This document shows, in pieces, positions 9,566 to 46,533 of a DNA stretch of 64,000 nucleotides; position 1 is the first letter of the stretch, and each line of letters opens with the position of its first letter. The stretch lies in assembly GCA_030748635.1 (NCBI GenBank), contig JASMLP010000147.1, positions 1 through 64,000 of the forward strand, read 5' to 3'. This DNA is from Planctomycetota bacterium. GTDB taxonomy: Bacteria > Planctomycetota > JACQVV01 > JASMLP01. The translations under genes were made by a program, and so were the position numbers. The notes under the pieces are model-generated. The model was not told the DNA's origin. It ran no database searches and worked only from the letters and a program-made list of their open reading frames with translations.

Positions 9566-12310
9566 ATGCCCCCCTCTACGGACCCTCCTCCCGAACCGAC
9601 AGACCCGGACCACGCCGGCATTCCGCTCGATGACGATTCCTTTCATTCGAGCGAACTCCCGATCGTTTCCCCTCGTCTCCGGGAAATTTCGGAGGAAGAC
9701 TCCCTGCAGACTCCTCGAGCGGGAAATTCTTTTGGCTCATTCCGGCTACTCCGACTCATCGGACGCGGTGGCATGGGCTCTGTGTACGAGGCCCAGCAAG
9801 ATACACCCTCCCGACGAGTCGCGTTAAAAATCCTCGGCTCTCACTGCTGGACAAACCCCACCGCGCGCCAGCGATTCCGAAGAGAGATTCTTTCCATCTC
9901 TTCTTTTCAGCACGACCACATCGTCCGCGTGTTCACAGCGGGAGAAATCGACGATATCCCCTATTACGCGATGGAATTACTCGAGGGCCAACCGTTGGAC
10001 CAGTTTCTCTCGGAAGGGCACCTCCCTCCTCGAAAAGCTTGCCAAATCGCCCTTCAGGTCGCCAGCGGGCTCGAGTACTCACATAGCCGAGGCATTGTTC
10101 ACCGAGACATCAAGCCGTCCAACCTCATTCTCACCCAGAGAAAAACAGACGAAGATCACATCGTCATAACCGACTTCGGCCTCGCCCAAGATGAATTCGG
10201 GGAAGATCTGACTGCTACAGGCCAGATCTTAGGCACTCCTCTCTACATGGCTCCCGAACAGGTTTACGGAATCCGAGACCAGATCGGGAAGAAAAGCGAT
10301 ACCTACTCTCTGGGAGCAACCCTCTACCATCTTTTGACCGGGCGCCCTCCGATCGACGCCAAAAGTTTTGGAGAGCTCCAATCTCGGCTTGAAACCCAAC
10401 CGTTCATCCCGCCGAGCAAGATCCTCTCCAGCATCCCCACCGATCTGGATCGGATATGCAACCACGCCCTGTCGAATAACCCAAAAGATCGTTATCCATC
10501 AACCGGAGAAATGGCGCGCGACCTGGATCGATTCCTTCGCGGAGAGGCGGTATGCGCGCCTCAAGTTCCTTCCCCTCACCGAACGCGTAATGTAATCGTT
10601 GCGCTCACCCTGATCGGTGTCCTTTGTGGAATCGGCTTTCAACTCCTTCTCAGCAGGACTTCACAGCAAGATCTCGATCAGAAAATCACCACCCAGGACG
10701 AGAAACGCTTAGCTCAGATACTCCGGTCCAAAGATCAGAAGCGATTGGCTCTTCTCCAAACCGATTTCAACAAAATCTCGAGTCGTTTTTATTCTCGCCA
10801 CATCGGCCACAAACAATATCAATCGGCACTCCAAGACATACTCCTGCAGCTACGAGTCCTGATTACTCAATCACCCAACATTTCAGGGTGTCATGACCTG
10901 AGAGGACAAATTCTGGGACAACTAGGTCAACCCGAGCAATCCGAAATATCCTGGCGAAAATCGATCCAGATCGACCCCCACGCTCTTGGAACCCGAATTC
11001 GCCTGATGAGGCACCTCCTCCACCAGGTGTACGACCTTCGATATCTTCCCCTAGATGGGTCCCCGACCCGTGCGCTCGAACGCTCACGCGCCATGGCCAA
11101 TGCACTTCAGGATCTGTATACCCAAGCTCCTCTTCTTCCGGATGAATCCCGGTCAATCGCTCTGGAGACACTCACCCAAATTGGCCATTCGGTGGCATTC
11201 AAGGATGATCTCGATACCCACACTCTCTGCCTGCAAGGCTTGAAACAGGATTTGCCTCCCGCTGTGCGAGCAGATCTGGAGTGGATTGGTGGCCTCTCTG
11301 CCCAGCCCCCTTCCGAAATGCGGCGTGGTTTCGAAAAGGCGATCGAACTATCTCCCCAGCACATTCACGCTCGATTCAGCCTCGCTCGCTTCCATCATCA
11401 ACAAGCGGTTCAGTCGCCTACAGGAACGGGACGTCACCTGAGTAAAGCTCGAGAAATTCTGGATGAAATCATCCTCCTTTCCCCTAAACGAGTCTGGTCA
11501 TTTGTCGAGCGAGGAACGATCCTCTTGCGCCTGAAAAATTACCCGAAAGCCCTCAAGGATCTGAATCGAGCCGTCGAACTGAGTCCCATCTATTACGCCG
11601 CACGCCTCCAGCGCGGAATCGCCCGTCGACAGACCGGCGACTTCCTGGGTTCCATTGAAGATCTGGACACCGCCATCGGGGCCCACCCCCAGGAAACCGA
11701 AGCCTGGCTGGAGCGAGCCCGCGCCTACATGGAGCTTCAGAAATACAAAGAGGCCTTTCACGACTTTAGCAGAGTCCTTTCCATGTCCCCCGACCACCTC
11801 GAGGCCCGAGCCCAGCGATCCATCCTCCACAACATTTCCGGCCGAAAGGAAGAAGCTCTCCTGGACGCCAACAGATATATCCAACTCGCCCCCAAATCCT
11901 CATCCGGCTACCGAGCCCGAGGACAGGCCCACCTCTCGATGGGTGGCTACCTACAAGCTATCCAGGATTTCACCCAAGCCATTGAAGTCGACACAAAACC
12001 CTCAGCCCACGACTTTTCCAATCGCGCTGTGGCCCGATGGAGAATTAATCAAATCCAAGAGGCCTTCAAAGACTTCTCTCATTCGCTAAAAATCGACCCC
12101 TCCCATAGCCGATCTCTATTGGGTCGAGCCGGCATCTTCCTTCAGATGAGCAAAAATCCCGGCCTAAAGAAAGCGGATCGAACCCGTTTGCTCCAGAAAG
12201 CCCTGATCGACTGTCGACAGTTTCTGAAAACGCCGGAAAATCGGGCCCTCCCCCACAAAAAGGGGAAGGATCTGCTGAGAAGGATTCAGAGCCACCTCAA
12301 TCAGCGGTAA
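9566..12310 (+). CDS. Transmembrane Ser/Thr protein kinase with C-terminal TPR array
   Basis: 914 residues. A disordered acidic N-terminus (1-55) precedes a Hanks-type kinase domain (about 56-330): GRGGMGSVY glycine loop, VALKIL Lys near 88, VHRDIKPSN catalytic loop near 180, TDFGLA near 202 and TPLYMAPEQ near 228, all intact. One membrane segment follows (about 341-362, VIVALTLIGVLCGIGF), then a long outer-face or periplasmic region (about 435-895) of TPR units (DLRGQILGQLGQPEQSE.., RGTILLRLKNYPKALKDLNRA, RARAYMELQKYKEAFHDFSRV). This is the PknB-TPR layout common in Planctomycetota. It is the last gene of the operon begun by the CUB-like protein and is convergent with an ECF-like sigma factor, so it may signal to that or to the FHA proteins in this window (inference). 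Confidence 0.93.
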   Translation: MPPSTDPPPEPTDPDHAGIPLDDDSFHSSELPIVSPRLREISEEDSLQTPRAGNSFGSFRLLRLIGRGGMGSVYEAQQDTPSRRVALKILGSHCWTNPTARQRFRREILSISSFQHDHIVRVFTAGEIDDIPYYAMELLEGQPLDQFLSEGHLPPRKACQIALQVASGLEYSHSRGIVHRDIKPSNLILTQRKTDEDHIVITDFGLAQDEFGEDLTATGQILGTPLYMAPEQVYGIRDQIGKKSDTYSLGATLYHLLTGRPPIDAKSFGELQSRLETQPFIPPSKILSSIPTDLDRICNHALSNNPKDRYPSTGEMARDLDRFLRGEAVCAPQVPSPHRTRNVIVALTLIGVLCGIGFQLLLSRTSQQDLDQKITTQDEKRLAQILRSKDQKRLALLQTDFNKISSRFYSRHIGHKQYQSALQDILLQLRVLITQSPNISGCHDLRGQILGQLGQPEQSEISWRKSIQIDPHALGTRIRLMRHLLHQVYDLRYLPLDGSPTRALERSRAMANALQDLYTQAPLLPDESRSIALETLTQIGHSVAFKDDLDTHTLCLQGLKQDLPPAVRADLEWIGGLSAQPPSEMRRGFEKAIELSPQHIHARFSLARFHHQQAVQSPTGTGRHLSKAREILDEIILLSPKRVWSFVERGTILLRLKNYPKALKDLNRAVELSPIYYAARLQRGIARRQTGDFLGSIEDLDTAIGAHPQETEAWLERARAYMELQKYKEAFHDFSRVLSMSPDHLEARAQRSILHNISGRKEEALLDANRYIQLAPKSSSGYRARGQAHLSMGGYLQAIQDFTQAIEVDTKPSAHDFSNRAVARWRINQIQEAFKDFSHSLKIDPSHSRSLLGRAGIFLQMSKNPGLKKADRTRLLQKALIDCRQFLKTPENRALPHKKGKDLLRRIQSHLNQR

Positions 12311-20809: not shown

Positions 20810-23800
20810 ATGTCGGATTCGTCGACAGACCCTTATATAGGGCGAACCTTTGGCCCATGCCGTGTAGAGAAAAAACTGGCTGTTGGTGGGTACGGTGTCG
20901 TCTATCAGGCCGTCGACAACACCCTGGGAATCCCCCGCGCAGTCAAGGTCTTTCACCCTCACGTTTCTCGTGAACCTGAGTTCCGGGGCCGCTTCCAAAA
21001 CGAAGTCCGACTGATGGCTCAGTTGGATCACCCGAATATCGTCAAGATCGTCTACGCCATCGTCGAGGAAGACGTCTCCGGATTCGTGATGGAGTTCGTC
21101 GCCGGCGAAGAAATTGGAGAATATCTAGAAAAAAGTGAACGCATAGAGATCCCCGAATGCTTCCAGATCATGACCCAGGTTTTACGAGCCATCGAATATG
21201 CCCACTCGTTGGACCCCCCGGTCATTCATAGAGACCTATCCCCGGATAACCTCCTGCGTCGCTCCGATGGTCAGGTCAAAATCATGGATTTTGGCATTGC
21301 GAAAACGATCAACTCCGAAAAACTGACCCAGACCGGCGTTGTTCTGGGCAAACCGTGCTACATGGCCCCCGAACAGTTCGAAGGACAGGTCACTCCAGCC
21401 ACCGACCAGTACGCCCTTGGAGTCATCTTTTATGAACTTCTTACCGGAGACATTCCCTTCGAAGGTGAATCTCCGGTAGCCCAGTACAAGGCTCGATTTC
21501 AACAAGAGGTCAAATTTTCGGCTGAGGACCGTTCCCGCATCCCCGAAACGATTCAGGACATCGTTCTGAAATCGCTGGCCCAGGACGCCGACGACCGCTA
21601 CGCCTCCATCTCCGAAATGCTCTCCGCGCTCGAATCCGAATTAGGTTCAAACGCGGGCCTTCAAAACGCCGCAGCCCCCACGCCAAAAAGTTCTCTTCCC
21701 CCGGAAGCTCGCGAACATTACGAAGCGGGAGTGCTCGCTCTTCAGCGAGCCGACTATGTCGGCGCAAAGGAAGCTTTCGGTCGAGTACTGGAAATCGATC
21801 CCGATCACCCCGACGCGGCCAAGCACCAGGATTTCGTACAGAAGGAACTGGAGCACCAGCAACTCGAAACCCGCCAAAACGTCAACATGGCTCGAGAAAT
21901 CACCACCACCTTGAACACCGGCAAAGATCTTCTCATGGCCGGAGAAAGTGGTGAGGCGGCTCGACATTTCCGAAGAGTCCTGAACTGGAACGAGAATCAC
22001 ACCGAAGCCCACCAACTTCTCGCCGAATGCAAACGAGCCATCGAAGACCAGGATCGACGAGAACAGATCAGCCTGTTCTACAGTGAAGGAATTTCCTTCT
22101 ACGAAAATCGTAAATTTTCCGAAGCCACCCGGTGCTTCGACAAGGTTCTGGAATGCTTTGGAGGTCACAAGGGCGCTCTCGACCACCGATCGAAATGCCA
22201 AAGTATCCTCGAAAACAAAGATCAGATCGAAGCCCTGCAGCGTGAAGGACTCGAACTTTTTCACGGAGCGGACTACGAAACGGCTCTTGCTCGATTCGAA
22301 AACATCCTCGAGTTAGACCCGGAAAACCCGGAGGCCCAGAAGTACAGGAATCTCAGTCGCGAACTCATCTACGAGGAAAGTCGTAGCGCTTCGGGTCCAT
22401 CGGTGCCCCCAGCCAGACGTCGAACCACCAACCAACTCGCCCGACCGAGACGAACGACCACGCAATCCTCGAGAGTGCGACGCCGAACCACCCAATCGAA
22501 CACTCAACCGAGTAGCACGCAATGGGTTCTCCCCGCCACGATCGGAGGAGTCATCCTGATTGCGCTCATGTTTTTCATGTTTCATTCTTCCTCCTCCGAC
22601 TCCGTGGCGACAAACCTCAACCCTTCTCCAGCCCCCTCCACTCCGAAGGACCCCAAAAAGCTGCGAGCAGAAAAGGTCGACAAAGCCACGGAAGCCTTCC
22701 GAAAAGCCATCACATCCAAGCGAGTTCGGAAAGCGACCCAGGCTCTTCAGGAAGCGATCCAGGCCGCAGGAACCCAGCGCGCCCTGCTAGAAGAACTCCA
22801 AAGTTTCCTCGCTCTGCCTGGCCGTGTCGAATGGCTTCTCGACACGGAACCCAAAACCCACTCCGACCTGCTCGTCAAGGTATTCGGGAAAAACGACCCC
22901 TTTCTCGATCAATTGAGCGGCAAGTTTTCGGAAGAGAGTCAAGGCTACCTCGAATCCAAGAAATACGAAAAAGCCCGACAAGCGGCCTCTCGCGCCTTGC
23001 TTCTCAACGATGCCGATATGGAAGCCCGTAAAAGCCGAAGCCTCGCTTATTTCGGTGAGAGACAGTACCTGGAAGCTATTCCCGATCTGGAAATCCTACG
23101 AAAGCAACACCAGTCAGAACTCCTCTTCCACCTGGCCATGTGCTATCTCCACACTCAGAAGTTAGAAAAAGCTCGACAGACAGCTGAAGAGTTCCGGCAA
23201 GCGACCCCCGAAAATCCTGATGGATACCGACTCCGAGCGAAAATCCTCATCGAACAGGGCGATTTCCGCGGAGCGATTCTCGACTTGCAAGAGGTCATGA
23301 AGCTTGACAACCCCAACGGAGTCGCTCGATTCAAAATTCTACAGATGCTCTCCAAAGCTCACTATGGACTCGGAGATCTCTGGCGCGCCTGCCTGTACGA
23401 ACTCCAAGCGGTCAAGTTCGCCGATCAGGATTATGCACGAGGACAACACCCCCAGCAGTTGACCGATCTGCTGAACGGACACCTTGCCAAACTACAGACC
23501 TCTCAACGACTCCCCTACGATCTGGACTTCCGCGTCATGCCCCCGACCGGAAATCTTCAATCGCGGGTCCAGGTCGCCTTTCCCTGGCCCAATGATCACC
23601 AGTGGAAAAACCGAGACAACCTCTGGGGTCTGCGAATGTTTATCGGAGGGCAAAGCGCCTTCGAGGCTCGATTCCAGTTGAGTTCGTCGGAAATCGCCCG
23701 AGGAATTCAACTCCGCCTGGATCATGTAAGCACCAATCGACCCGATGGGCTCCGAGATGGCCGAATTTCTCTCTGGATCAACGACTCCCTGATCGAAAAA

Positions 23801-23950
23801 AACAAAAATCTCTGCGGAAAAGCCCAAGACCCCTATCAATGCGACATCACCAAGATGTGCAAACCGGGAAACAACTCCGTGAAAATCCGTTTTGCGGAAA
23901 ACTCCCAAACCCAATACTGGCTGCGACGGGTACAGATCTCCTCCCGTTGA
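20810..23950 (+). CDS. Transmembrane Ser/Thr kinase with TPR units and C-terminal jelly-roll domain
   Basis: 1046 residues. Kinase domain about 15-275: AVGGYGVVY, AVKVF with K46, HRDLSPDN (140-147) and MDFGIAK (D160). The catalytic loop has Ser144 where most Ser/Thr kinases have Lys; this variant is known in bacterial kinases and need not be inactive. TPR-like helices follow (about 300-520), then a basic Arg/Thr-rich linker and one membrane segment (about 571-592, ATIGGVILIALMFFMF). The outer part has more TPR units (about 690-860) and ends with a beta domain (about 950-1046; DGRISLWINDSL, DITKMCKPGNNSVKIRF) like the sugar-binding jelly-roll of glycosidases. It therefore may sense a glycan or envelope ligand (inference). 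Own promoter upstream. Confidence 0.9.
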   Translation: MSDSSTDPYIGRTFGPCRVEKKLAVGGYGVVYQAVDNTLGIPRAVKVFHPHVSREPEFRGRFQNEVRLMAQLDHPNIVKIVYAIVEEDVSGFVMEFVAGEEIGEYLEKSERIEIPECFQIMTQVLRAIEYAHSLDPPVIHRDLSPDNLLRRSDGQVKIMDFGIAKTINSEKLTQTGVVLGKPCYMAPEQFEGQVTPATDQYALGVIFYELLTGDIPFEGESPVAQYKARFQQEVKFSAEDRSRIPETIQDIVLKSLAQDADDRYASISEMLSALESELGSNAGLQNAAAPTPKSSLPPEAREHYEAGVLALQRADYVGAKEAFGRVLEIDPDHPDAAKHQDFVQKELEHQQLETRQNVNMAREITTTLNTGKDLLMAGESGEAARHFRRVLNWNENHTEAHQLLAECKRAIEDQDRREQISLFYSEGISFYENRKFSEATRCFDKVLECFGGHKGALDHRSKCQSILENKDQIEALQREGLELFHGADYETALARFENILELDPENPEAQKYRNLSRELIYEESRSASGPSVPPARRRTTNQLARPRRTTTQSSRVRRRTTQSNTQPSSTQWVLPATIGGVILIALMFFMFHSSSSDSVATNLNPSPAPSTPKDPKKLRAEKVDKATEAFRKAITSKRVRKATQALQEAIQAAGTQRALLEELQSFLALPGRVEWLLDTEPKTHSDLLVKVFGKNDPFLDQLSGKFSEESQGYLESKKYEKARQAASRALLLNDADMEARKSRSLAYFGERQYLEAIPDLEILRKQHQSELLFHLAMCYLHTQKLEKARQTAEEFRQATPENPDGYRLRAKILIEQGDFRGAILDLQEVMKLDNPNGVARFKILQMLSKAHYGLGDLWRACLYELQAVKFADQDYARGQHPQQLTDLLNGHLAKLQTSQRLPYDLDFRVMPPTGNLQSRVQVAFPWPNDHQWKNRDNLWGLRMFIGGQSAFEARFQLSSSEIARGIQLRLDHVSTNRPDGLRDGRISLWINDSLIEKNKNLCGKAQDPYQCDITKMCKPGNNSVKIRFAENSQTQYWLRRVQISSR

Positions 23951-24269: not shown

Positions 24270-27200
24270 ATGACCATCGAGATTCGTATCATCGAAAATG
24301 GAGAGGAACGAACCGTCGACTTCCCTCCAGACAGCGACTCCATCACCATCGGTCGCGCCCCGGACAACGACATCCAGATTCTGGAGAAACGCTCCAGTCG
24401 TTATCACTGCCGAATCGAACGCGACGGAAACAATTATCTGCTCGTCGATCTCGGTTCTGCCAACAAGACGCTCCTTCGAGGCGAGCCCGTTACTTCCGCC
24501 TCTCTCGATCGAGGCGACGCCTTCGAAGTGGGCAAAACTCGATTTATTTTCGGCAAAGCCAGAGCGGCGAATCGCCCCCCTACCAGTCGTCGACATCGCC
24601 GCCAGACCGTGACCAACACGACAAACTCTTCGGACGGTTACTTCAGTAAATTCTGGGGCGAAATCCAGTCCACCATTCCGGCCCACCAGCGGCAAATGAT
24701 CGGCTTGTTTGGGGGTGGAGCCCTGGTCCTCATTCTGGTGATCGTCGGACTCAACGCCTACTCTCGGCAACAACTAACCGAGCAAACCCGACGCGACTAC
24801 ATGCGCGCCAAACAACTACACGAACAAGCCAACGCGGAATGGAAAAAAGTTCAAGGCCTTGAGCCGGACATCGTCCTGCCTCCATCGGTCACTCAAAATC
24901 TTGACTCCTCGACCCTGGCAAGAATCGACAGAATCCAACAGGAAAAGGTCGAAGCGTACTACGAAGAATACCACGCCGTTCTCGAAACGTTTCGTAAAGC
25001 CCGGAAAGGTTACGAACGAACCTCCAAGGGAATGGGAGCCAAAGCAACCACCGCAAGATCCCAAGCCAAAAAACTGAAAAAGTTTCTTCTCCTCAACGAC
25101 GAAGCCAAAAAAGAGTATGACAAACTGTGGACCAACGCACAGGAGGGGCGTTACTCCGCCACGCTTTACATCCGCCGACTTCAGCGATTGCTCGAAACCT
25201 ACAAAGGCACACTCATCGAGGCTCACGCTCTCCACCAGATTTCTACCGCCAGACGTCTCGAAGAGAACACCATTCGAAAAGAGATGGTTCAAATCCGAGA
25301 CGATGTGCGTGATCTAATCGCCAACGGGGACTATCCCAAAGCCGTCCAACGCTGGAACGACTTCCGTTCTCACTACAACAACCCAGCCTTCGAGTCGAGA
25401 ATCGAACAAGAACTCATCAAGATCAACCAACTGGCCATAGATGAATTCCGAATGATCGCACGGACCGCGGATCAGTGGGTAGACCAGAAGCGGTATAACG
25501 AAGCCCGACGCCTCTACAATGAAGCCATTTCCAACTACCGAGGAACCGGCGTCCCCTATCTGGCTCGAGAAAAGATCGAAGAGATCGAAATCATCAATGC
25601 GCAAGGAATTTCGAGGCAAAAGGCCGCCCTTCTCCTTGCACGTCAGGGCGAATTCCGCCAGAAAGCCCGCCAGGTCGACCAACTCATCCAGGCCGGAAAA
25701 CACCGAGAGGCGGTCGCGCTCGCCCGTGAAGTTCAAGAACAGCTGCAGAAACTGAACGATCCTGAACTGAGTCTCCTGGCTTCCCGATTCGAGCAACGCG
25801 TCGACGACATCAGTCGCATGGTAGCCCTGGAAGCCAAGCTATCCCAAGCCATTAACTCTCGAACCCTTGCCCGAGATGAGATCAAACTTCCAGAAGGCGG
25901 CACCCAACAAGTTTCTGGAGCCGACAAAACCTTTGTCTATTTTCTGGCTCACGGAGGAAATGTGGAGTTCCGTTTACGGTGGTCTGAACTTCGCAAGCGA
26001 CCCAAAGATCTCTACGCCCTTTTTTCCCTCCTCGAGCTCACAGCGCAGGACCACCTCGCGCTGGCCATGTTCTGCTTTGAAAACGACCTGGAGAGATTAG
26101 GCCACCTGGAACTGATCCTCGCCCTGAAAAACGATCCCAAAATGTCCACCGCCGTTTTTGCCTACTTCTCCCGACGTACAGGCAAGGCCATCCCCACTGG
26201 AGGCTTCCTCGTCCACAACAAACGGCTCATGACTCCCGAAGAAAAGGTTCGAGACCTGGACAGTGAAGCGCTCGCGGCCCTCGCTCGGCGCGCGGGAACA
26301 TCCGGCAAATCAGGAAGCGCCGCCTTCGAAGAACTGAAAGCCAAGCTCGAGTCCATGGGGAGCAAGCATGGTGAAGACTTTACCCAGAAAATTCGTAAAG
26401 AACTGATCACCAAAATCGAAAAGAAAAAAAATAGCTACCTGGCCTCATTGGAGCGTTCTTCGAGCTTCGGCGACATCAAAACCCTCAAATTGCTTCGGGA
26501 GGAACTCGACTCTCGGCGCAAACACGCGCTCGAACTGATCTTTGACGAGGTCAAATACCCGTACGACGCTTGCCACGGATGCAAAGCCCAGCCCGAAGTC
26601 GACAAGCGGGTCGCAGCCGTTCGCGAGATCTGGGACACCCCGATGAACGGCGTCAAAACCGTCAACAAGAATATCGGCAACATGACACGCCGGATCGAAG
26701 AGATGAATAAGCAACTCCAAGCGCTCGACCCGGAATACAAAAGCGATTCCAAGGTCGACCTGAAATACATCGAAAGCCTGGCCAACAAAAAGCTAGACAT
26801 CAAAAATTTCGCTCCGTCCAGCGCATCCCAAGACAAACAGACCATTCGGCACAATAACGAGGTCATGAAAGAAAACGCTTCCAAAAAATCCGTAGCGACA
26901 GATCTGGAGCGAGAGCAAGTCCGGATCACCAACAAATACCGTATCATGATGGGAAAACGCGCGGTCCGCCTCGACGACAAACTCATCCTCGCCGCTCGTG
27001 GTCATAGCGAGTACATGCAACGCTCCGGTCAATTTGCCCACCGAGTGCCGGGACATCCAGATGGCGCCAGCCCCCAAGATCGAGCCCGCAAACAGGGATA
27101 CGTGGGCGGAGTGGGTGAGAATATTTCAATGGGCCGCGAATCTCCTCAAGGGGCCCACGACGCCTGGGTCCATTCCTCTGGCCACCATCGCAATATTTTG

Positions 27201-27272
27201 CGGGATCAGTGGAAAGCGATGGGCGCCGGACACGCCGGAAAATACTGGACACAGGTTTTCGGCAGTAAATAG
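24270..27272 (+). CDS. FHA - transmembrane - coiled coil - CAP/SCP fusion protein
   Basis: 1000 residues. An N-terminal FHA domain (about 5-95; ITIGRAPDNDIQI, SSRYHCRI, VDLGSANKT) is cytoplasmic. A single membrane segment (about 147-168, GGGALVLILVIVGL) leads to a long helical, charged coiled-coil region (about 180-860) with several Glu/Lys/Arg heptad stretches and a CHGC motif near 767-770. The C-terminus (about 877-1000) is a CAP/SCP domain: NKYRIMMGKRAVRLDDKL, HSEYMQRSGQFAH, GVGENISMG and WVHSSGHHRNIL, with the usual His/Glu/His cavity residues. The design couples phospho-Thr recognition inside to an envelope CAP module outside. It lies directly after the jelly-roll kinase and before RNase Y. 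I know of no named family with this order. Confidence 0.88.
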   Translation: MTIEIRIIENGEERTVDFPPDSDSITIGRAPDNDIQILEKRSSRYHCRIERDGNNYLLVDLGSANKTLLRGEPVTSASLDRGDAFEVGKTRFIFGKARAANRPPTSRRHRRQTVTNTTNSSDGYFSKFWGEIQSTIPAHQRQMIGLFGGGALVLILVIVGLNAYSRQQLTEQTRRDYMRAKQLHEQANAEWKKVQGLEPDIVLPPSVTQNLDSSTLARIDRIQQEKVEAYYEEYHAVLETFRKARKGYERTSKGMGAKATTARSQAKKLKKFLLLNDEAKKEYDKLWTNAQEGRYSATLYIRRLQRLLETYKGTLIEAHALHQISTARRLEENTIRKEMVQIRDDVRDLIANGDYPKAVQRWNDFRSHYNNPAFESRIEQELIKINQLAIDEFRMIARTADQWVDQKRYNEARRLYNEAISNYRGTGVPYLAREKIEEIEIINAQGISRQKAALLLARQGEFRQKARQVDQLIQAGKHREAVALAREVQEQLQKLNDPELSLLASRFEQRVDDISRMVALEAKLSQAINSRTLARDEIKLPEGGTQQVSGADKTFVYFLAHGGNVEFRLRWSELRKRPKDLYALFSLLELTAQDHLALAMFCFENDLERLGHLELILALKNDPKMSTAVFAYFSRRTGKAIPTGGFLVHNKRLMTPEEKVRDLDSEALAALARRAGTSGKSGSAAFEELKAKLESMGSKHGEDFTQKIRKELITKIEKKKNSYLASLERSSSFGDIKTLKLLREELDSRRKHALELIFDEVKYPYDACHGCKAQPEVDKRVAAVREIWDTPMNGVKTVNKNIGNMTRRIEEMNKQLQALDPEYKSDSKVDLKYIESLANKKLDIKNFAPSSASQDKQTIRHNNEVMKENASKKSVATDLEREQVRITNKYRIMMGKRAVRLDDKLILAARGHSEYMQRSGQFAHRVPGHPDGASPQDRARKQGYVGGVGENISMGRESPQGAHDAWVHSSGHHRNILRDQWKAMGAGHAGKYWTQVFGSK

Positions 27273-27379: not shown

Positions 27380-28924
27380 ATGTTCGACTGGATTATTCTG
27401 ACCCTATGCGCCACCACTTTTGGCATCGCCTTCTCTCTTCGGCTTCTCCTGTTGAGAGTTGTCCGGGCACGTTCGGAGCGCCGCGGCGCCGCGCAGATCG
27501 AACAGGCACGCCGACAAGCGGATCGAGAGATTCGCCACCAACAACATAAAGCGACCCAACAAGTCGATCAGAAGTTGGAGAAGAAGCGAACTCGGCTAAA
27601 AAATCGACTGGCTCGGCAAATATCGAGAACAGAGGAACTCAAAGAGCGCGAGGAACGCAACCAGGAAGATTCCCTACGCATCGAAAACATCCTCCGAGAA
27701 CTCAACAACGACCGAAGTTCCCTGGGGCGCCAGCGAAAACGCATCCTTTCCCAGCAAAGCGAAGCCGCCGAAATCGACAGTCAGATCAAGAAAGAACTCC
27801 TCGAAAAAATCGACCAGACTCCCGATCAAATCCAGTCCCAGATACTCGCCCCCCTACAGGAAAAACTCGACGAGGAGATGCGGCGCAGAGTCGAGCACAC
27901 CATGAAATCGCTCGAATGGGAGGCCAATCGGCGAGTCGGGCGTACGATCCGTACAGCCATCGATCGCTGCCAGGTATCCCACTTCAGCGAGTTTCGCCCC
28001 GCCGCGGTCAGCCTTCGGCGTCGCGATGGCAAGGGAGTTCCACTGCCAGGAGAAGAGGTAAACGCCCTGCTCGAAGAGACTTTAGAAGTCGGACTGACTC
28101 AGGAGGAATCCAAAGAATGGTCGGTCAGTTCTGGCGATGGCGTCGGGCGCGAAGTGGCCAAACGAGCCATCGCCGAAACGCTTCGTTCCCGACAAGGGAA
28201 TGTGGATTTGCTGCGCAAAAAAATCCAAAAACAGCTGAAGATCATGGAAAAAGAGCTACTCAAAACCGGAAGGTGGGCAGCCCGGCAATCCAAAATCAAA
28301 AATCCCCCCAACTCGGTTCTCGAGTGCCTAGGACGGCTTAAATTCCGAACCAGTTACGGCCAAAACATCCTCTATCACTCCATCGAAGTCGCCCACCTCA
28401 CAGGACTGTTTGCGATAGAACTCAAGATGGCCCCTCACCTAGCCCGGCAAGCGGGGCTACTTCACGACATCGGAAAAGCTCTCGATCACAACCAGGAGGG
28501 AGGCCACCCGGAACTTGGTGGACGCCTGCTCCGGGACGCCAAGATGCCCGAAGAGGTCTACCTGGCCGCTGAAGGACATCACTTCGATCCAGAAAAACAG
28601 AGCCGGGTCACCCTTCTCGTCTCCGCGGCTGACGCGATCAGCGCGAGCCGTCCCGGAGCGCGCCGCGAATCTTTCGACCTTTACATCGAACGCCTTCAGC
28701 GCCTCGAATCGATCGCCTACGAACAACGTGGCGTACAAACCGCTTATGCCATCCAGGCCGGGAGGGAACTCCGGGTTCTGGTAGACCCAAAACACATCGA
28801 CGACACCGCGGCTCATGACATCAGCCAATCGATCGTCGGACGCATCGAATCCGAACTTCAATATCCCGGCCCGGTCAAGGTCACCGTGATCCGAGAAAAA
28901 ATGGTGGTGGAATATGCTCGCTAA
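27380..28924 (+). CDS. rny: RNase Y-like membrane HD phosphodiesterase with degenerate KH domain
   Basis: 514 residues. An N-terminal membrane segment (about 2-25) is followed by a long Arg/Gln/Glu-rich coiled coil (about 30-180) and an HD domain with GQNILYHSIEVAHLTG, LLHDIGKALD (near 358) and EGHH, all intact. This is the RNase Y plan for initiating mRNA decay at the inner membrane. The stretch where the KH domain should be (about 200-285) keeps the spacing and the tail VGREVAKRAIAETL, but the RNA-contacting GRIIGREGRNI loop is replaced by GVPLPGEEVNAL. RNA recognition must therefore differ. The last 11 bases overlap the next gene. Confidence 0.88.
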   Translation: MFDWIILTLCATTFGIAFSLRLLLLRVVRARSERRGAAQIEQARRQADREIRHQQHKATQQVDQKLEKKRTRLKNRLARQISRTEELKEREERNQEDSLRIENILRELNNDRSSLGRQRKRILSQQSEAAEIDSQIKKELLEKIDQTPDQIQSQILAPLQEKLDEEMRRRVEHTMKSLEWEANRRVGRTIRTAIDRCQVSHFSEFRPAAVSLRRRDGKGVPLPGEEVNALLEETLEVGLTQEESKEWSVSSGDGVGREVAKRAIAETLRSRQGNVDLLRKKIQKQLKIMEKELLKTGRWAARQSKIKNPPNSVLECLGRLKFRTSYGQNILYHSIEVAHLTGLFAIELKMAPHLARQAGLLHDIGKALDHNQEGGHPELGGRLLRDAKMPEEVYLAAEGHHFDPEKQSRVTLLVSAADAISASRPGARRESFDLYIERLQRLESIAYEQRGVQTAYAIQAGRELRVLVDPKHIDDTAAHDISQSIVGRIESELQYPGPVKVTVIREKMVVEYAR

Positions 28925-39654: not shown

Positions 39655-42600
39655 ATGTACCGATTTTCATCCCTCTATCTGCTGATTCTGATCGTGGCTC
39701 CTGGCCTCATCGCTCAAGAAACCGATGGGCGAGATGCGGAGCAAAACGTTCCCATTGTCCATTACGTCTCCCACCGTAGCGCAAAGGTTCCCTGGAAGAA
39801 CCCCCCCGGGACCGCCGAGGAAGGGGACTGGGTCTTTTTTCGCACAGATGATGACGGCCAAAGCTGGATACCCGTAGCCGCGATCTACCCAAATGCGGAC
39901 GGAATGGCCTCGTTGCCTCGGTTCGAGAAAGATGGGCATTACGGGTACCGTTTCGTCAAACTAAAAGGCGGCATGCTCGAAGCAACTTTGACACCCTTGC
40001 CGGGGACTCCCCCCGAGATCAAGATCATCCTCGACACCAAAGCTCCGATATGTCGCTGGACTCTTCCCCAAAGATCTCTCCTCCGCGGCCCCCCAGTTCT
40101 TCTCGAATGGGAGGCCAAAGACGACAATCTTTCTGAAAATTGTGTACGCATCGACTACCGCCGAGAAGGTACTTACGAGTGGAAGCGAGTCGCTGATCGA
40201 ATTTCCAATTCCGGCTCCTACCGGTGGAAAAACCCTCCACGCGGACTGGGGCAGGTTCGTTTTCGGCTTACCATCATAGATCGAGGAGGCCTTGTCGCAA
40301 CGATCCGTAGTCGAACGTATGAGGTAACTCCCGTTCGGCTGACCATTCGCATGGGTCCCGGAGCTCGTACCCATCATAAACCCGGCCCCATTCCGATTCC
40401 CTACATCCTGGATAACTACGCAGGAATGTCGATCGCCGGAGCCAGCCTATGGGTCACCCACGACGAGGGAAAAAACTGGGGAATGGCCGACGAGCGAATG
40501 GAGACACGCGGCATCTTCGAAATGCGCCTCCTGAAAGAGGGGATCTACGGTCTCTGGATGGAAGCTCGTGAACCGGGAGCCCCCAAAAGCCCCGGCCCCT
40601 CCTCCGGGCAACTCCCGATGGCATCCATCGTGGTTGATGGGACGCCACCAACAGTGGTATTCCAATGTGCACCCGGCCCGGAAACCCGTTTCAAACCAGG
40701 ACAAACATTGACCCTGACCTGGTCGGCCAAGGACAAGCATCTGCGCTCCAACGAGATGCGCATCGAGGCGTCCAAAGACGGCGGAAAAACCTGGGAAGTC
40801 GTTCACCAGAATCTCGCCTCCCGAGGCACGAATCAGATTTCGATCCCCGACGTGGACGACGAGAGCTTCCTGCTCCGAGCCTCGATCACGGACCAAGCGG
40901 GAAACCGGACCGATCAGTTTCTTCCCGACAACGGATACTTCCGAGTCGGCTCCTCCCCTTCTGTCACTCCCCCCCCCCCCACACCCGAAGTCCCCCAGCC
41001 AGATATCCCCACGCCACTTGAGCAGCCCAAGGGGTTCACCGCTCATCTCTTCAACTTCAACGGATCGAGTCAGCAGCCGGAAATTTACAAGGGCGGGAAA
41101 ACAGAAGTCGTCCGCTGGTATCTGCCCAGTAAAACGACCCAAGCCAAGCTTGAAGTGAACTATGGAGACGGGACCTATCAAACCCTGAAAGAAGGTATCA
41201 GATCCAACCAGTACGTCTGGATACTCCCCCGGATCACCCAATCCAATTGCCGCTTGCGCCTCACAATCGAAGACGAAGAACACCCCGCGGAGATGACCAG
41301 CAGCCGGAAAACCTTTTCCATCGACAGCCTCCCACCCAGATGCACAAAAATCCTCGGGATGAAATGGCTCGGCTCCCGATCCGCCCAACTCAACATGACC
41401 GCATTCATCGAGGACCAGGGCGATGCCGGGGTGAAAGAATTGCGCCTTTGGTCTCGGCGTGACTCGCCTGACTCGAGTACTGAGTGGAGATTGGAAAAAC
41501 ACTCGAAGGTGGATCGAGCCACGTGGGCAGGCAGGTGGCGTCTTTTCAACTCCAAACCCGCAGACGGTCGATGGCACTTCTTCGTGACATCAACCGACCG
41601 TGTAGGGAACGAATCCCCTCCCCCCAAGGCCAACAGCAAGCCTCAATACACCGTCACCATCGACTCCAAGGGACCTGAAGTCGAATTCGACTGGACACCG
41701 ATTGCCGAGGGTTATCACTTCCGGTGGACCGCCCAGGACCCGAATCCAGGCCGAGTCGCGATCGAATACTCTGAAGTCGGCACCGACCAGTGGCACCCCA
41801 TTCACAGCCAACTCCCTATGCAGGGCGAACACACATGGACCGTGAAGGCAGGTCGGTTCGAACAGGTCGAACTCTTATTCCGAGTACGCGCCGCGGATGC
41901 CGCCGGCAACGAGACCAAAATGGAACGGATCACCCCAGGTGTTGCCCCCGTCGGCACTGTCCGCAACGAGCTGGCAGTCGTAGCCACAGGCCCCCGCCAA
42001 AGCGATAGCCACCTGATCCAAGTGACCTACGATGTTCGCTGGATCGAAGCCAGGGCTCAGCTTCAAAGAGTCGACGTGTGGCTCTCCCCCGATGGAGGCG
42101 CGAGTTGGAAAGGCGCTTACGGGCCGGACGACCCTGAAGCCCCCATCCCCTCTACGATCCAAGTTCGAGTGAATCGAGACGGCACCTACGGAATCATCGC
42201 AAGAGCCAGAGATAGTCTCGGGAACCAGGAGCCCCCCATCAAGGCAAACGCCACTCCTGAGTTCTCTGTGCTCGTCGATACCGCTCCACCTCGCCTGGAA
42301 GTGAACTCGACCCCATCACTCGAGACCCCTCTCGCCCCGAACACTCCAATCCTGCTCTCCTGGGAAGTCCAAGACGCCAACCTCTCCCCCAAACCTGTTC
42401 ACATCGAGATCTCCGAGGACGGAGGTCGAACCTGGAAAGATCTCGACCGAAACGCACCTCCGCGAGGAAATCGTAAATGGGACTCCTCTTCCCAGGAACG
42501 AACCTATATCAAATTTCGCCTGACCGCGACCGACCTCGCAGGAAAAACCGCTCAGAAGATTATTCCCGCTCAAGCTCCAAGCGTCGAGGTCACACGCCTC

Positions 42601-45600
42601 GAACAATCTTCTGATGGGCGACTCTCGGCGGGATATCGAGTTCGCAACCTTTCCGCTCCTCACCGTCTCCAACGCGTCGAAATTTTCACTCGAATGTCGG
42701 GAAATCCTCCACGCCGGTGGACACCCTCAGGTCAGTATAAAACAGGAATCGAAGGCACCTTTCATCTCGATCTCCCCCCCGCGGCTTACGATCTCCTCAT
42801 ACGCCTCATACTCGAAAGGGACATCCAAAAAAGCCCCGACCCCAAAACCAAACCAACGGCAAGCTATCAACTGGGGGGAACAGGATCTGAACTCGAACTC
42901 CTCTCTCTGAACGGCGGACCGAATCAGGTTTATCAGGGGGGCTCCACCGAGACCGTTCGCTGGCGCTTGCGATCGAGCATGTCTCCCGCGGCTCTCAAAC
43001 TTTCCTATCGAGTCAGCGAGTCCGGCGAATGGATTCCCGTTACCCAACTCGACTCCGACACCGATTCTTACGAGTGGCCCCTTCCCCGACTTACGGCCAG
43101 GTCCGTTCGGATCCGTCTGGAGTGGGAAGGTCCCAACGGCAAAAAAGCCTGGGCGACCAGCCGCAATCCGTTCGCTATCGACTCGGCCTCCCCCCAGTTC
43201 GAATCCATCGAAGGCCCCTCTTTCTATAGCCACGACACAGCCCAACCGATTCGTCTGACCATCCAGTTTCGTGATATCGGAGATGCCGGCCTCGCTCGAG
43301 GCATTCTCTGGGAACGCCCGTTGGGCAAAACCCGCTGGCAACGCATGGGCGCCCCCAACCAAAAGGTCGATCCCACCGGAATATGGGTCTTCGAATTGAG
43401 ACTGAAACCCACATCCGCACAAGCTCACGAATTTTTTGTTACCGGGGTCGATCGAGCGGGGAATGCCATGACTCCCCCCACTCCCGACAGTCCTCCACAC
43501 CACACGATGACTATCGATTCGATCAAGCCGGATCTCCAATTTTCGACCACCCCTTCCGGCGAGAATCCCCTTCGAGAAGGCGAAGTCCTACAACTCGAAT
43601 GGCTGGCCAGCGATGAGAATCTGGCCGAGAAACCGGTCCAGATTCTTTACCTAGGCAAAGACCGGAACTGGCGCCCGATCGCCACGAATTTGGATGCCCA
43701 AGGCAGCATGAATTGGATCGTTCCCTCCACTCTCGCGGGAAGTCCGGTACGAATTCGCGCGAGCGCCAGAGACCAGGCTTCCAACGTCACTCTTGTGAAC
43801 TGGGGCACCAGCGCTTCAGTCACTCAAAGACCTCCCGGCCCAAGAGTTGAGATGCCAACCGCTGTCGGCCTGGATGTACGAGCTCTGGGCCCCTTCGAAA
43901 GCGCCCATCGCACCATCAAGCTGGACATCAGCACCCAAGGCCTTGCACCGGGGACATCACTCACGAAGGTGAATGTCTTCTGGACCAAGGATGGGGGCTT
44001 GCGCTGGGAAGGGCCCGCAGCAATCAGTCGCATCTTGAGTCCCAACCAGATCGAAACTCAACTACCGACGGATGGACGACTGGGATTGACCCTGCGCGGT
44101 ATCACCTCCGATGGAACCGCGGAATCCACACCTCGTTCTCCCAATCCGCCCGAGCTCGACATTCTTGTCGACTCCACTCCCCCCGAAGTTCAGTTAACAG
44201 ATCTTGATGAAGACGTTTTCTGGAATCGTCCGATCTACCCGATTCGCTGGCAACCCGCGGCAGACGAGAATCTGTCTGATCGTCCGATCCGACTTTACTT
44301 CCGGCTCCAGGGAGAAAACAGCTGGAAGGCGATCGAAGGCGATCTTCCCAACCGAGGCAGCCACGCCTGGAGAATTCCCGCCGGGTTCATGGGGCCCGCG
44401 CAATTCAAAATCGTAGCCCGCGATCGCCTGGGCAATCAGAGTGAACAGATCAGCCCGGGCCGATTCTACTTCGAGTCCATTCGGCCCACTCTGCGGGTGA
44501 TCGCTCCCAAGGGCTTGGTCAACCAGGGTGGCCAAGAAATCATCTTCGAGTTGCTCAACCGAAAACTCGAACTGGAGAAAGTCGATATCTATCGTTCCAT
44601 TGACGGCGGAACCACCTGGCAACCCGCGCTGGGAGCCTACACCACACGAGGCAATCTACATGCGCTCGGGAACAGAAAGTATCGCCTGGCTTACGAGGGG
44701 ATCGAGGGAGAAAACAGTGTGTATCTGGTCGCTCACGACCGAGCCGGCAATCACAACCCTCTCCCGACACCCGGCACCCTTCCCCAACTGACTTTTCTTC
44801 TGGATCAAATTCCTCCCCGAGTGATGATCCAAGACTCCATGGGAGGCAAAGCGTTCCCTCCTGGCCACTCCCTCGATCTGGAATGGAGCGCCGCAGACCT
44901 CAATCTGTCTGAATCATCCATCAAGATCGCGCTTTCGGATTCCAGCGGAAGAACTTGGGAAACGACCCTAAGTGACAACCTACCCAATAGCGGCAAACAT
45001 CCACTCTCACTCCCCCAGAAGAACGGGGAACATTATCGGATTCGCGTCCAGGCGACAGATCGAGCGGGCAACACAGGAACCGCAGTGTCAGGGGAATTCA
45101 TCATCGACGGACTCCCCCCCACCAGCCAGGCACTCCCCCCCGAAAACTGGACCGAGTCCACAGCCATCCCCATCCAGGTGACCGCTCGTGACGCCGGTGG
45201 CGCAGGAGTTCAAGCCGTCCAGCTCTGGTTCAAGCACGAAGAGATCGAGGACGGAAAATGGCAACTCCTTCTTCCCTGGACTCCTCACCCCCTGAGTAAT
45301 CCGATTCCACTCAGCGGTCCTGACGGAGATTACGAAATCGTCTCCAGAAGCCGCGACCGAGCTGGCAACCTGGAGAGCAAGTCCGGATTCGAAGAAGCAG
45401 GCCCGACTCCCGAAGCGACCGCGGACGCATCTCTCACCCTTTCTCGCACCGGACCTCAGGTCCGATTCATCAAAACCTTTGCCCAAAGCGGCCTGGTCGG
45501 GGGAGGCGCCCATTCCATTCACTGGGAGACCAACTGGAATCAACTCGGTCAAATCGCCCCCATCACCCAGGTCCAGATCAAATTCTCCACGGATGGTGGA

Positions 45601-46533
45601 CAAAACTGGGAACTGATCGCCGGAGCCGAAGCCCTTCCCGACACCCCACCCTTTACTTGGACTCCTCCGCCATCGGTCATGAAGGAAACCTGTTATCTTC
45701 AGATTCTGGTTCAGAACGAATTCGGCCAGAAGAGTTCCTCAACCAGCGCGGCATTCCGACTCGACACGGTTCCCCCCAAAACAACCATCCGATTTCAAGA
45801 TGATGAAGACGATCAAGTTCGAGGTTGGATCGAACCTTCCCTGAGACTGGACCTCGAAATGCTCCCGCTCTTGGAGTCGCTCCCGCGGCTTCCGAGTTCG
45901 CTCTTTCATGCTCTCTACTTCTCGGCCTCCGAAACGATGAAGAAAGCGACCAACGCCTTCTTCGACGGACGCTATCCGGAAGCCATCCGCCTCATCCAAT
46001 CGCAACTCGATTCAACCCCAACCCCCTCTTTCCAGTTGCACTACCTGCTCGCTCTTAGTTTGCGGGAACGTGACGGTGATAGCCACGAGGTCGAACATCA
46101 CCTGAAAATCGCGTCCAAACTCGCCGGAAATGATCCCAAAATCGCTAACGATCTCGGGTGCCTTTACTTCCGACGAGGCCAATTCGATTCTGCTCACCAG
46201 TGGTTCAACAAAGCGATCCAAACATCCCAAGGTGACCTTTTTGATAAAACGACAAGAGCCCGATTCTTCTACAACCTGGGCGCGACCTACTATCACCAGA
46301 AAGACCCATCTGGCGCCATCGGAGCTTTCAATCAATGCCTATCCCACGCTCCGATTCGTGAGGCCCATGTGTACCTGGCTCTCGCTCACGCTCGACTAGG
46401 CCAAACCGCCCAAGAAATCCAGCACTTGCGCGACATCGCCCTGCTCTACCCCAGCGACTCCTCCGTCTCTTCCTGGGCCCGAAACCGCCTTCGAGTTCGT
46501 CCAGCCTCCGCCCCGAAGAGTCTTGCCCGATGA
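39655..46533 (+). CDS. Giant secreted protein of repeated Ig-like beta modules with TPR tail
   Basis: 2292 residues. A signal peptide (about 1-21, ending PGLIAQE) precedes a long series of beta-sandwich modules. The commonest type (D-x-x-P-P.., LxWxAxDxNLS, DGGxTW, ATDxAGN) recurs near residues 126, 326, 671, 876, 1287, 1505 and 1716, alternating with a GxYGL-type module and with GGxTExVRW and DxGDAGV types. The block C-D-A-B-A at about 479-970 is repeated at about 1094-1605 (offset 615-633 residues). The C-terminus (about 2060-2292) is a TPR array (ATNAFFDGRYPEAIRLIQSQL, NDLGCLYFRRGQFDSAHQWFNKA). No enzyme domain. A cell-surface or periplasmic scaffold is inferred. It starts at the base after the purQ stop and overlaps the BamD-like gene (ATGA). 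Confidence 0.85.
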   Translation: MYRFSSLYLLILIVAPGLIAQETDGRDAEQNVPIVHYVSHRSAKVPWKNPPGTAEEGDWVFFRTDDDGQSWIPVAAIYPNADGMASLPRFEKDGHYGYRFVKLKGGMLEATLTPLPGTPPEIKIILDTKAPICRWTLPQRSLLRGPPVLLEWEAKDDNLSENCVRIDYRREGTYEWKRVADRISNSGSYRWKNPPRGLGQVRFRLTIIDRGGLVATIRSRTYEVTPVRLTIRMGPGARTHHKPGPIPIPYILDNYAGMSIAGASLWVTHDEGKNWGMADERMETRGIFEMRLLKEGIYGLWMEAREPGAPKSPGPSSGQLPMASIVVDGTPPTVVFQCAPGPETRFKPGQTLTLTWSAKDKHLRSNEMRIEASKDGGKTWEVVHQNLASRGTNQISIPDVDDESFLLRASITDQAGNRTDQFLPDNGYFRVGSSPSVTPPPPTPEVPQPDIPTPLEQPKGFTAHLFNFNGSSQQPEIYKGGKTEVVRWYLPSKTTQAKLEVNYGDGTYQTLKEGIRSNQYVWILPRITQSNCRLRLTIEDEEHPAEMTSSRKTFSIDSLPPRCTKILGMKWLGSRSAQLNMTAFIEDQGDAGVKELRLWSRRDSPDSSTEWRLEKHSKVDRATWAGRWRLFNSKPADGRWHFFVTSTDRVGNESPPPKANSKPQYTVTIDSKGPEVEFDWTPIAEGYHFRWTAQDPNPGRVAIEYSEVGTDQWHPIHSQLPMQGEHTWTVKAGRFEQVELLFRVRAADAAGNETKMERITPGVAPVGTVRNELAVVATGPRQSDSHLIQVTYDVRWIEARAQLQRVDVWLSPDGGASWKGAYGPDDPEAPIPSTIQVRVNRDGTYGIIARARDSLGNQEPPIKANATPEFSVLVDTAPPRLEVNSTPSLETPLAPNTPILLSWEVQDANLSPKPVHIEISEDGGRTWKDLDRNAPPRGNRKWDSSSQERTYIKFRLTATDLAGKTAQKIIPAQAPSVEVTRLEQSSDGRLSAGYRVRNLSAPHRLQRVEIFTRMSGNPPRRWTPSGQYKTGIEGTFHLDLPPAAYDLLIRLILERDIQKSPDPKTKPTASYQLGGTGSELELLSLNGGPNQVYQGGSTETVRWRLRSSMSPAALKLSYRVSESGEWIPVTQLDSDTDSYEWPLPRLTARSVRIRLEWEGPNGKKAWATSRNPFAIDSASPQFESIEGPSFYSHDTAQPIRLTIQFRDIGDAGLARGILWERPLGKTRWQRMGAPNQKVDPTGIWVFELRLKPTSAQAHEFFVTGVDRAGNAMTPPTPDSPPHHTMTIDSIKPDLQFSTTPSGENPLREGEVLQLEWLASDENLAEKPVQILYLGKDRNWRPIATNLDAQGSMNWIVPSTLAGSPVRIRASARDQASNVTLVNWGTSASVTQRPPGPRVEMPTAVGLDVRALGPFESAHRTIKLDISTQGLAPGTSLTKVNVFWTKDGGLRWEGPAAISRILSPNQIETQLPTDGRLGLTLRGITSDGTAESTPRSPNPPELDILVDSTPPEVQLTDLDEDVFWNRPIYPIRWQPAADENLSDRPIRLYFRLQGENSWKAIEGDLPNRGSHAWRIPAGFMGPAQFKIVARDRLGNQSEQISPGRFYFESIRPTLRVIAPKGLVNQGGQEIIFELLNRKLELEKVDIYRSIDGGTTWQPALGAYTTRGNLHALGNRKYRLAYEGIEGENSVYLVAHDRAGNHNPLPTPGTLPQLTFLLDQIPPRVMIQDSMGGKAFPPGHSLDLEWSAADLNLSESSIKIALSDSSGRTWETTLSDNLPNSGKHPLSLPQKNGEHYRIRVQATDRAGNTGTAVSGEFIIDGLPPTSQALPPENWTESTAIPIQVTARDAGGAGVQAVQLWFKHEEIEDGKWQLLLPWTPHPLSNPIPLSGPDGDYEIVSRSRDRAGNLESKSGFEEAGPTPEATADASLTLSRTGPQVRFIKTFAQSGLVGGGAHSIHWETNWNQLGQIAPITQVQIKFSTDGGQNWELIAGAEALPDTPPFTWTPPPSVMKETCYLQILVQNEFGQKSSSTSAAFRLDTVPPKTTIRFQDDEDDQVRGWIEPSLRLDLEMLPLLESLPRLPSSLFHALYFSASETMKKATNAFFDGRYPEAIRLIQSQLDSTPTPSFQLHYLLALSLRERDGDSHEVEHHLKIASKLAGNDPKIANDLGCLYFRRGQFDSAHQWFNKAIQTSQGDLFDKTTRARFFYNLGATYYHQKDPSGAIGAFNQCLSHAPIREAHVYLALAHARLGQTAQEIQHLRDIALLYPSDSSVSSWARNRLRVRPASAPKSLAR
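40969..40980 (+). repeat. Homopolymeric C12 tract in the giant protein gene
   Basis: Twelve consecutive C encode the PPPP in a Pro-rich linker near residues 439-442. The tract is the longest homopolymer I saw in the window and lies in frame; a one-base slip would truncate the protein. Confidence 0.9.

What the first reader, a model, noticed from the sequence alone, without database searches (positions are those of the whole stretch)
24270..27272. New architecture: FHA - TM - long coiled coil - CAP in one chain
A phospho-Thr reader inside and a CAP domain outside are joined by about 700 residues of helix with a CHGC motif. CAP domains are normally secreted, and I know no described protein that ties one to a cytoplasmic FHA. 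It follows a jelly-roll kinase directly, so kinase and reader may form a transmembrane signalling system.
Basis: partly seen in the sequence, partly recalled or inferred. Interest (0 to 1): 0.65.

Follow-up and report, generated by a model that had tools for sequence, protein, structure and literature searches.

The report
Membrane-spanning FHA–CAP protein family of planctomycetes
This gene encodes a single-pass membrane protein that joins a domain able to read protein phosphorylation inside the cell to a cell-wall-type domain outside it; the design is old and widespread in the bacterial phylum Planctomycetota, I found no description of it, and it may let internal signalling control the cell envelope.

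Summary
The ORF at 24270-27272 (+) is one open frame of 1000 aa with an N-terminal FHA domain (Pfam E=1e-15), one strong hydrophobic helix at 143-161, and a C-terminal CAP domain (E=1e-13). It is not a chance fusion: 70 distinct Planctomycetota proteins share the order FHA, TM, stalk, CAP, and 87 of 199 phylum genomes carry a relative at E<=1e-20.

Three details need correcting. The middle is not a 700-residue coiled coil: it is a TPR/BamD-like helical repeat (165-530) followed by an undescribed module (530-875; no Pfam family, no significant PDB fold match). CHGC occurs in only 2 of 49 aligned members. The upstream kinase is conserved only in the one genome of the same order; across the family the enriched neighbours are a second FHA-TM protein downstream and FHA-GAF-sigma54 activators upstream.

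Unexpectedly, the start of the middle module recurs in proteins that end in an HExxH (DUF1570) domain instead of CAP, two of them with 4-5 FHA domains before the TM; one is in the window's own genome. The likely picture is a phospho-Thr-gated, envelope-spanning chassis with exchangeable outer domains. DalA, a characterised CAP-like relative, binds peptidoglycan. Function is inferred, not shown.

The parts
24270..27272 (+). FHA-TM-stalk-CAP protein, 1000 aa
   Evidence: ORF; Pfam FHA and CAP; 70 proteins with the same order
24279..24560 (+). FHA domain (aa 4-97), predicted cytoplasmic
   Evidence: Pfam PF00498 1.1e-15; fold match to FHA domains of FhaA and GarA, TM-score 0.7-0.9 by target length; phospho-binding residues mostly kept
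24561..24695 (+). disordered, basic and Thr-rich juxtamembrane linker (aa 98-142)
   Evidence: pLDDT mostly below 50; sequence
24696..24752 (+). single transmembrane helix (aa 143-161)
   Evidence: Kyte-Doolittle 2.61; a segment at the corresponding place in 70/70 family members
24762..25859 (+). TPR/BamD-like alpha-helical repeat stalk (aa 165-530)
   Evidence: AlphaFold2 helices; profile match to BamD/YfiO; TPR_14/YfiO Pfam hits in some homologues
25857..26249 (+). small beta plus helical module (aa 530-660), shared with DUF1570 proteins
   Evidence: AlphaFold2; recurs outside CAP proteins; no significant PDB fold match
26250..26894 (+). CAP-linked helical module with the Y-P..QxEVDxRV..W motif (aa 661-875)
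   Evidence: conserved in 49 sequences; no Pfam family in the window protein
26571..26582 (+). CHGC (aa 768-771), lineage-specific
   Evidence: 2 of 49 aligned members
26895..27269 (+). CAP domain (aa 876-1000), predicted periplasmic; H912, H924, E950 and H973 invariant
   Evidence: Pfam PF00188; PDB 4ifa; invariant in 49/49
20810..23950 (+). upstream Ser/Thr kinase-TPR-TM-TPR protein, possible partner
   Evidence: Pfam; TM at aa 573-591; adjacency kept only in the same-order relative among FHA-CAP loci

Best explanation
The gene is a member of a widespread, apparently undescribed Planctomycetota family of single-pass inner-membrane proteins. Shown by sequence: an FHA domain, one TM-grade segment, a TPR-like stalk, an undescribed module and a CAP domain, in a fixed order. 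Inferred: the FHA lies in the cytoplasm and docks on a phosphothreonine made by a Ser/Thr kinase; the stalk crosses part of the periplasm; and the CAP domain, with its four invariant H/H/E/H residues, binds or acts on the cell wall (peptidoglycan). The protein would thus place or gate an envelope function at sites of kinase signalling, or report wall state to FHA partners. A similar chassis also carries an HExxH domain in place of CAP, so the outer domain looks like an exchangeable output.
For: Fixed architecture in 70 proteins, each with a TM-grade segment after the FHA; relatives in 87 of 199 phylum genomes. FHA fold match to phospho-Thr FHA domains and phospho-binding residues kept in about 80-90% of members. 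CAP positions H912, H924, E950 and H973 in 49/49, aligning with the same residues of 4ifa. The CAP region matches DalA (NF052539, E=7e-12) and YkwD (TIGR02909, E=3e-16), both below the curated cut-offs; tagged purified DalA binds peptidoglycan (PMC10470522). The window's own genome has transpeptidase and Mur ligase genes, some clustered on C152. The beta module recurs without CAP in seven other proteins examined, all with an HExxH motif, five with a TM-grade segment before it or more, and two with 4-5 FHA domains before the TM. FHA-TM neighbours are strongly enriched. FHA-bearing members are spread over the whole tree, which needs 8 label changes against 15.8 for shuffled labels.
Against: No experiment was possible. 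Topology rests on hydropathy: K/R counts favour FHA-inside in 51 of 70 (11 opposite), but the window protein itself is one of the 11 over the 20 residues on each side (2 before, 5 after). DalA's peptidoglycan binding was shown for the whole tagged lipoprotein, not for its CAP region alone. All 39 genomes tested have peptidoglycan genes, so presence/absence gives no test of the wall link. Eukaryotic CAP domains do other things (lipid binding, protease; from own knowledge), so the ligand could differ.
Confidence: 0.5

Rival explanations
1. The protein is a dedicated partner of the kinase next to it: the kinase autophosphorylates its Thr-rich juxtamembrane segment and the FHA docks there, a two-protein transmembrane receptor.
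For: The kinase is directly upstream in the window and in the only same-order relative found. The window kinase has a basic, Thr-rich segment just before its TM helix.
Against: Outside this order no FHA-CAP gene had a kinase directly beside it (2 of 40 upstream, 0 of 44 downstream). The orthologous kinase in the relative has no predicted TM and ends before the TM/C-terminal region. A 319-bp gap separates the two genes in the window.
Confidence: 0.2
2. It is a structural scaffold: the FHA assembles with other FHA-TM proteins and sigma54 activators, and CAP simply anchors the complex to the wall, with no phospho-switch.
For: An FHA-TM neighbour directly downstream in 12 of 57 loci; FHA-GAF-sigma54 activators upstream. 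About 10-20% of members lack one or more phospho-binding residues. GltG of Myxococcus, also an FHA protein predicted to be transmembrane, belongs to a proposed envelope-spanning motility complex (PMC3169522).
Against: Most members keep the phospho-binding residues.
Confidence: 0.25
3. It is a T3SS YscD/CdsD-type inner-ring protein, as the Yop-YscD_cpl hit suggests.
For: Pfam Yop-YscD_cpl E=5.8e-14 at residues 10-97; fold match to the FHA domain of CT664 of Chlamydia.
Against: That Pfam model covers only the FHA-like domain, and other FHA proteins hit it too. The periplasmic part is TPR-like plus an undescribed module plus CAP, with no ring-building domain in Pfam.
Confidence: 0.03

Closest known systems
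DalA of Rhodobacter sphaeroides (NF052539), outer-membrane lipoprotein
   Same: C-terminal 130 aa of the window protein match the DalA model (E=7e-12); DalA is an outer-membrane lipoprotein that binds peptidoglycan
   Different: The DalA model is 169 aa long, with no room for FHA, TM and stalk; the match is far below the curated cut-off (45.5 against 200 bits)
YkwD family / PDB 4ifa (extracellular SCP-domain protein of a Bacillus)
   Same: CAP fold, rmsd 1.0 over 122 columns; same H/H/E/H positions
   Different: Extracellular protein; no FHA-TM-stalk in the match
GltG of Myxococcus xanthus (NF033760)
   Same: FHA domain in a predicted transmembrane protein with a different C-terminal domain, in an envelope-spanning complex
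   Different: C-terminal domain is TonB-like, not CAP; only the FHA region matches
YscD/CdsD (Yop-YscD_cpl, PF16697)
   Same: FHA-type domain followed by a TM helix (topology from own knowledge); CT664 FHA is a fold match
   Different: No CAP; the periplasmic part has no detectable relation
FHA(n)-TM-beta module-DUF1570 (HExxH) proteins of Planctomycetota (L122, L126 here)
   Same: FHA, TM and the same beta module
   Different: HExxH domain instead of CAP; 4-5 FHA domains

Membership tests
FHA domain (phospho-Thr reader) | profile match and FHA fold | tested here: met
FHA domain (phospho-Thr reader) | conserved phospho-binding residues (Gly-Arg, Ser-Arg-x-His, Asn) | tested here: met
   G28, R29, S43, R44, H46 and N65 in the window; 39-49 of 49 in the family. 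The canonical Asn-Gly is Asn-Lys in the window
FHA domain (phospho-Thr reader) | binds phosphothreonine peptide | not testable with these tools
   needs protein and peptide
CAP (PF00188) | profile match above gathering score | tested here: met
   52.1 against 21.1 bits
CAP (PF00188) | conserved His/Glu cavity residues | tested here: met
   H912, H924, E950 and H973 in 49/49; aligned to 4ifa
CAP (PF00188) | exported or extracytoplasmic | tested here: inconclusive
   TM before the domain and signal-like starts in FHA-less members; hydropathy only
DalA (NF052539) | score above curated cut-off | tested here: not met
   45.5 against 200 bits
YkwD (TIGR02909) | score above curated cut-off | tested here: not met
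   59.7 against 171 bits
YscD/T3SS inner ring | periplasmic ring-building domains | tested here: not met
   no such Pfam match; TPR-like, undescribed module and CAP instead
GltG | score above curated cut-off and TonB-like C-terminus | tested here: not met
   28.3 against 650 bits, FHA region only

The most novel reading that the evidence does not exclude
Planctomycetota have a phylum-wide class of phospho-Thr-gated transmembrane effectors: one or more cytoplasmic FHA domains, one TM helix, a TPR-like stalk and a shared undescribed module, ending in an exchangeable periplasmic effector (CAP or an HExxH peptidase), so that Ser/Thr kinase signalling directly controls wall or envelope enzymes across the membrane.
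Probability: 0.3. Interest if true: 0.75.

Novelty: new variant of a known kind. Interest (0 to 1): 0.55.

Why it matters
Planctomycetes have many Ser/Thr kinases and FHA proteins, but few of their outputs are known. A conserved protein that physically connects an FHA reader to a cell-wall-type domain gives a direct, testable route from phosphorylation to the envelope. It may also help assign a role to bacterial CAP domains, few of which have a known function. The exchange of CAP for an HExxH domain on a similar chassis suggests a general design.

Tried and rejected
Chance fusion or wrong start: rejected, 70 proteins keep the architecture. Long coiled coil: rejected. CHGC as a family metal site: rejected, 2 of 49. 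T3SS YscD membership: rejected. Single-protein search of genome contigs found nothing; the alignment search worked. Phylum search with the long alignment A4 failed twice and was replaced by the single protein. Test of co-occurrence with peptidoglycan genes had no power, since all 39 genomes have them. Promoter/terminator scan gave no excess over shuffles. Plasmid records: no record covers 80% of the query and the 15 listed match only the C-terminal CAP region. No RNA family in the window. PDB fold search of the middle module gave no hit at E<=0.001. The literature library holds no paper on FHA plus CAP that I could find, but it lacks most subscription journals.

Full report
Observation. The ORF at 24270-27272 (+) is open for 1000 codons. 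Pfam finds FHA at 25-88 (E=1.1e-15) and CAP at 885-991 (E=1.4e-13). One hydrophobic segment lies at 143-161 with a Kyte-Doolittle mean of 2.61. The window lies in a 4.2-Mb, 217-contig assembly whose relatives with named records are nearly all labelled Planctomycetota.

Family. A search of 40 genomes and a profile scan of named genomes recovered many homologues. After removing duplicates, 70 proteins (the window's included) hold FHA, a TM-grade segment, the middle module and CAP in that order; 17 have the middle module and CAP but no FHA, and 8 are cut by a contig end. In a draw of 199 phylum genomes, 87 have a relative at E<=1e-20, in 70 of 156 genera; that count includes CAP-module relatives without FHA. 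On a tree of the C-terminal part, FHA-bearing members occur throughout, and the FHA label needs 8 changes against a shuffled mean of 15.8. This fits an old fusion with several losses (inference). Some contigs carry two or three copies in tandem (L055, L058, L071, L082). Occurrence outside Planctomycetota could not be tested properly.

Anatomy. AlphaFold2 with 49 sequences gives mean pLDDT 86: FHA 1-97; disordered, Thr-rich basic linker; TM helix of low confidence; helical repeats 165-530; small beta domain about 537-570; helices and a hairpin to 871; CAP 878-998. The overall pTM is 0.54, so relative domain placement is not reliable. The FHA matches phospho-Thr FHA structures (FhaA, GarA) and the CAP matches 4ifa at 1.0 A over 122 columns. 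The 165-532 profile matches BamD/YfiO-type TPR proteins and a minority of members hit TPR_14 or YfiO in Pfam. The 530-875 module has no Pfam family in the window protein and no PDB fold match at E<=0.001 although it is predicted with pLDDT 90. CHGC occurs in 2 of 49 members.

Conserved residues. The FHA keeps G28 in 49/49, R29 in 41, S43 in 39, R44 in 40, H46 in 45 and N65 in 40 of 49. The CAP keeps H912, H924, E950 and H973 in 49/49, which align to the same residues of 4ifa. Both ends look functional rather than decayed.

Topology. K/R residues are more frequent in the 20 positions before the TM helix than after it in 51 of 70 members, the reverse in 11. The window protein belongs to the 11 by this count, although its linker further upstream is strongly basic. 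FHA-less members often begin with a hydrophobic segment, as for exported proteins. FHA-inside, CAP-outside is the likely topology but is not proven.

Neighbours. The kinase upstream (20810-23950) has an ortholog upstream of the same gene in the only same-order genome, with 41% identity over the kinase and TPR part, but that kinase has no predicted TM. In the other loci no kinase directly adjoins an FHA-CAP gene; one FHA-less relative (L037) has a kinase directly upstream. Enriched instead: an FHA protein with its own TM directly downstream in 12 of 57 loci against 2 of 293 background genes (binomial 5e-15, which treats related loci as independent and so overstates significance), and upstream activators with FHA, GAF and sigma54 domains.

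An unexpected result. The first part of the middle module (about 130 aa) recurs in other proteins of the same genomes. Of the eight additional proteins fetched, seven carry this part without CAP; two of them have four and five FHA domains before a TM helix, and all seven hold an HExxH motif with a DUF1570 match, weak in some. One four-FHA protein is in the window's own genome (G000:C187). The eighth is a second CAP protein of the window's genome without this module (L127). So the FHA-TM-stalk looks like a chassis with at least two alternative outer domains. The seven were not a random sample.

Mechanism. Of the NCBIfam CAP-region matches, DalA is the one with a published function: its purified tagged form binds peptidoglycan. 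The match is below the curated cut-off, so this is a resemblance, not membership. The window's genome has peptidoglycan synthesis genes. I propose that the FHA docks on a pThr in the cytoplasm and that the CAP domain binds or acts on the wall. The FHA and CAP identities and their order are shown; phospho-binding, topology and wall contact are inferred.

Comparison and novelty. FHA proteins that cross the membrane are known (GltG, YscD/CdsD), but none with CAP was found in the searched literature. I rate it a new variant of a known kind: new architecture from known domains plus one undescribed module.

Noticed in passing
window 3577-5526 (+): FHA-GAF-GAF-GGDEF protein (649 aa), a second FHA protein in the window, possibly linking pThr reading to c-di-GMP synthesis.
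   Followed up: no
window 9566-12310 (+): A second Ser/Thr kinase with a TM helix at 343-361 and C-terminal TPR repeats.
   Followed up: no
window 27380-28924 (+): RNase Y-like HD protein; the match covers nearly the whole length but scores below the curated cut-off (351 against 454 bits) and Pfam reports no KH domain.
   Followed up: no
L122:808-4596 (-), own genome G000:C187: Four FHA domains, TM, two copies of the beta module and an HExxH/DUF1570 domain in one 1263-aa protein; a five-FHA version is in L126.
   Followed up: partly
L023:4610-7732, L044:6193-9576 and six other loci: A conserved gene of mostly about 1000-1100 aa near the FHA-CAP gene in eight loci; the two members scanned have no Pfam match.
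   Followed up: no
L049:7450-9951, L097:7157-9883 and related loci: Proteins with repeated carboxypeptidase-regulatory-like domains close upstream of the FHA-CAP gene in about five loci.
   Followed up: no
window 39655-46533 (+): 2292-aa protein with weak Ig-like and BNR matches and C-terminal TPR repeats.
   Followed up: no
L127:2184-4265 (+), own genome G000:C204: The only other CAP domain found in the window's genome; no FHA and no beta module.
   Followed up: partly
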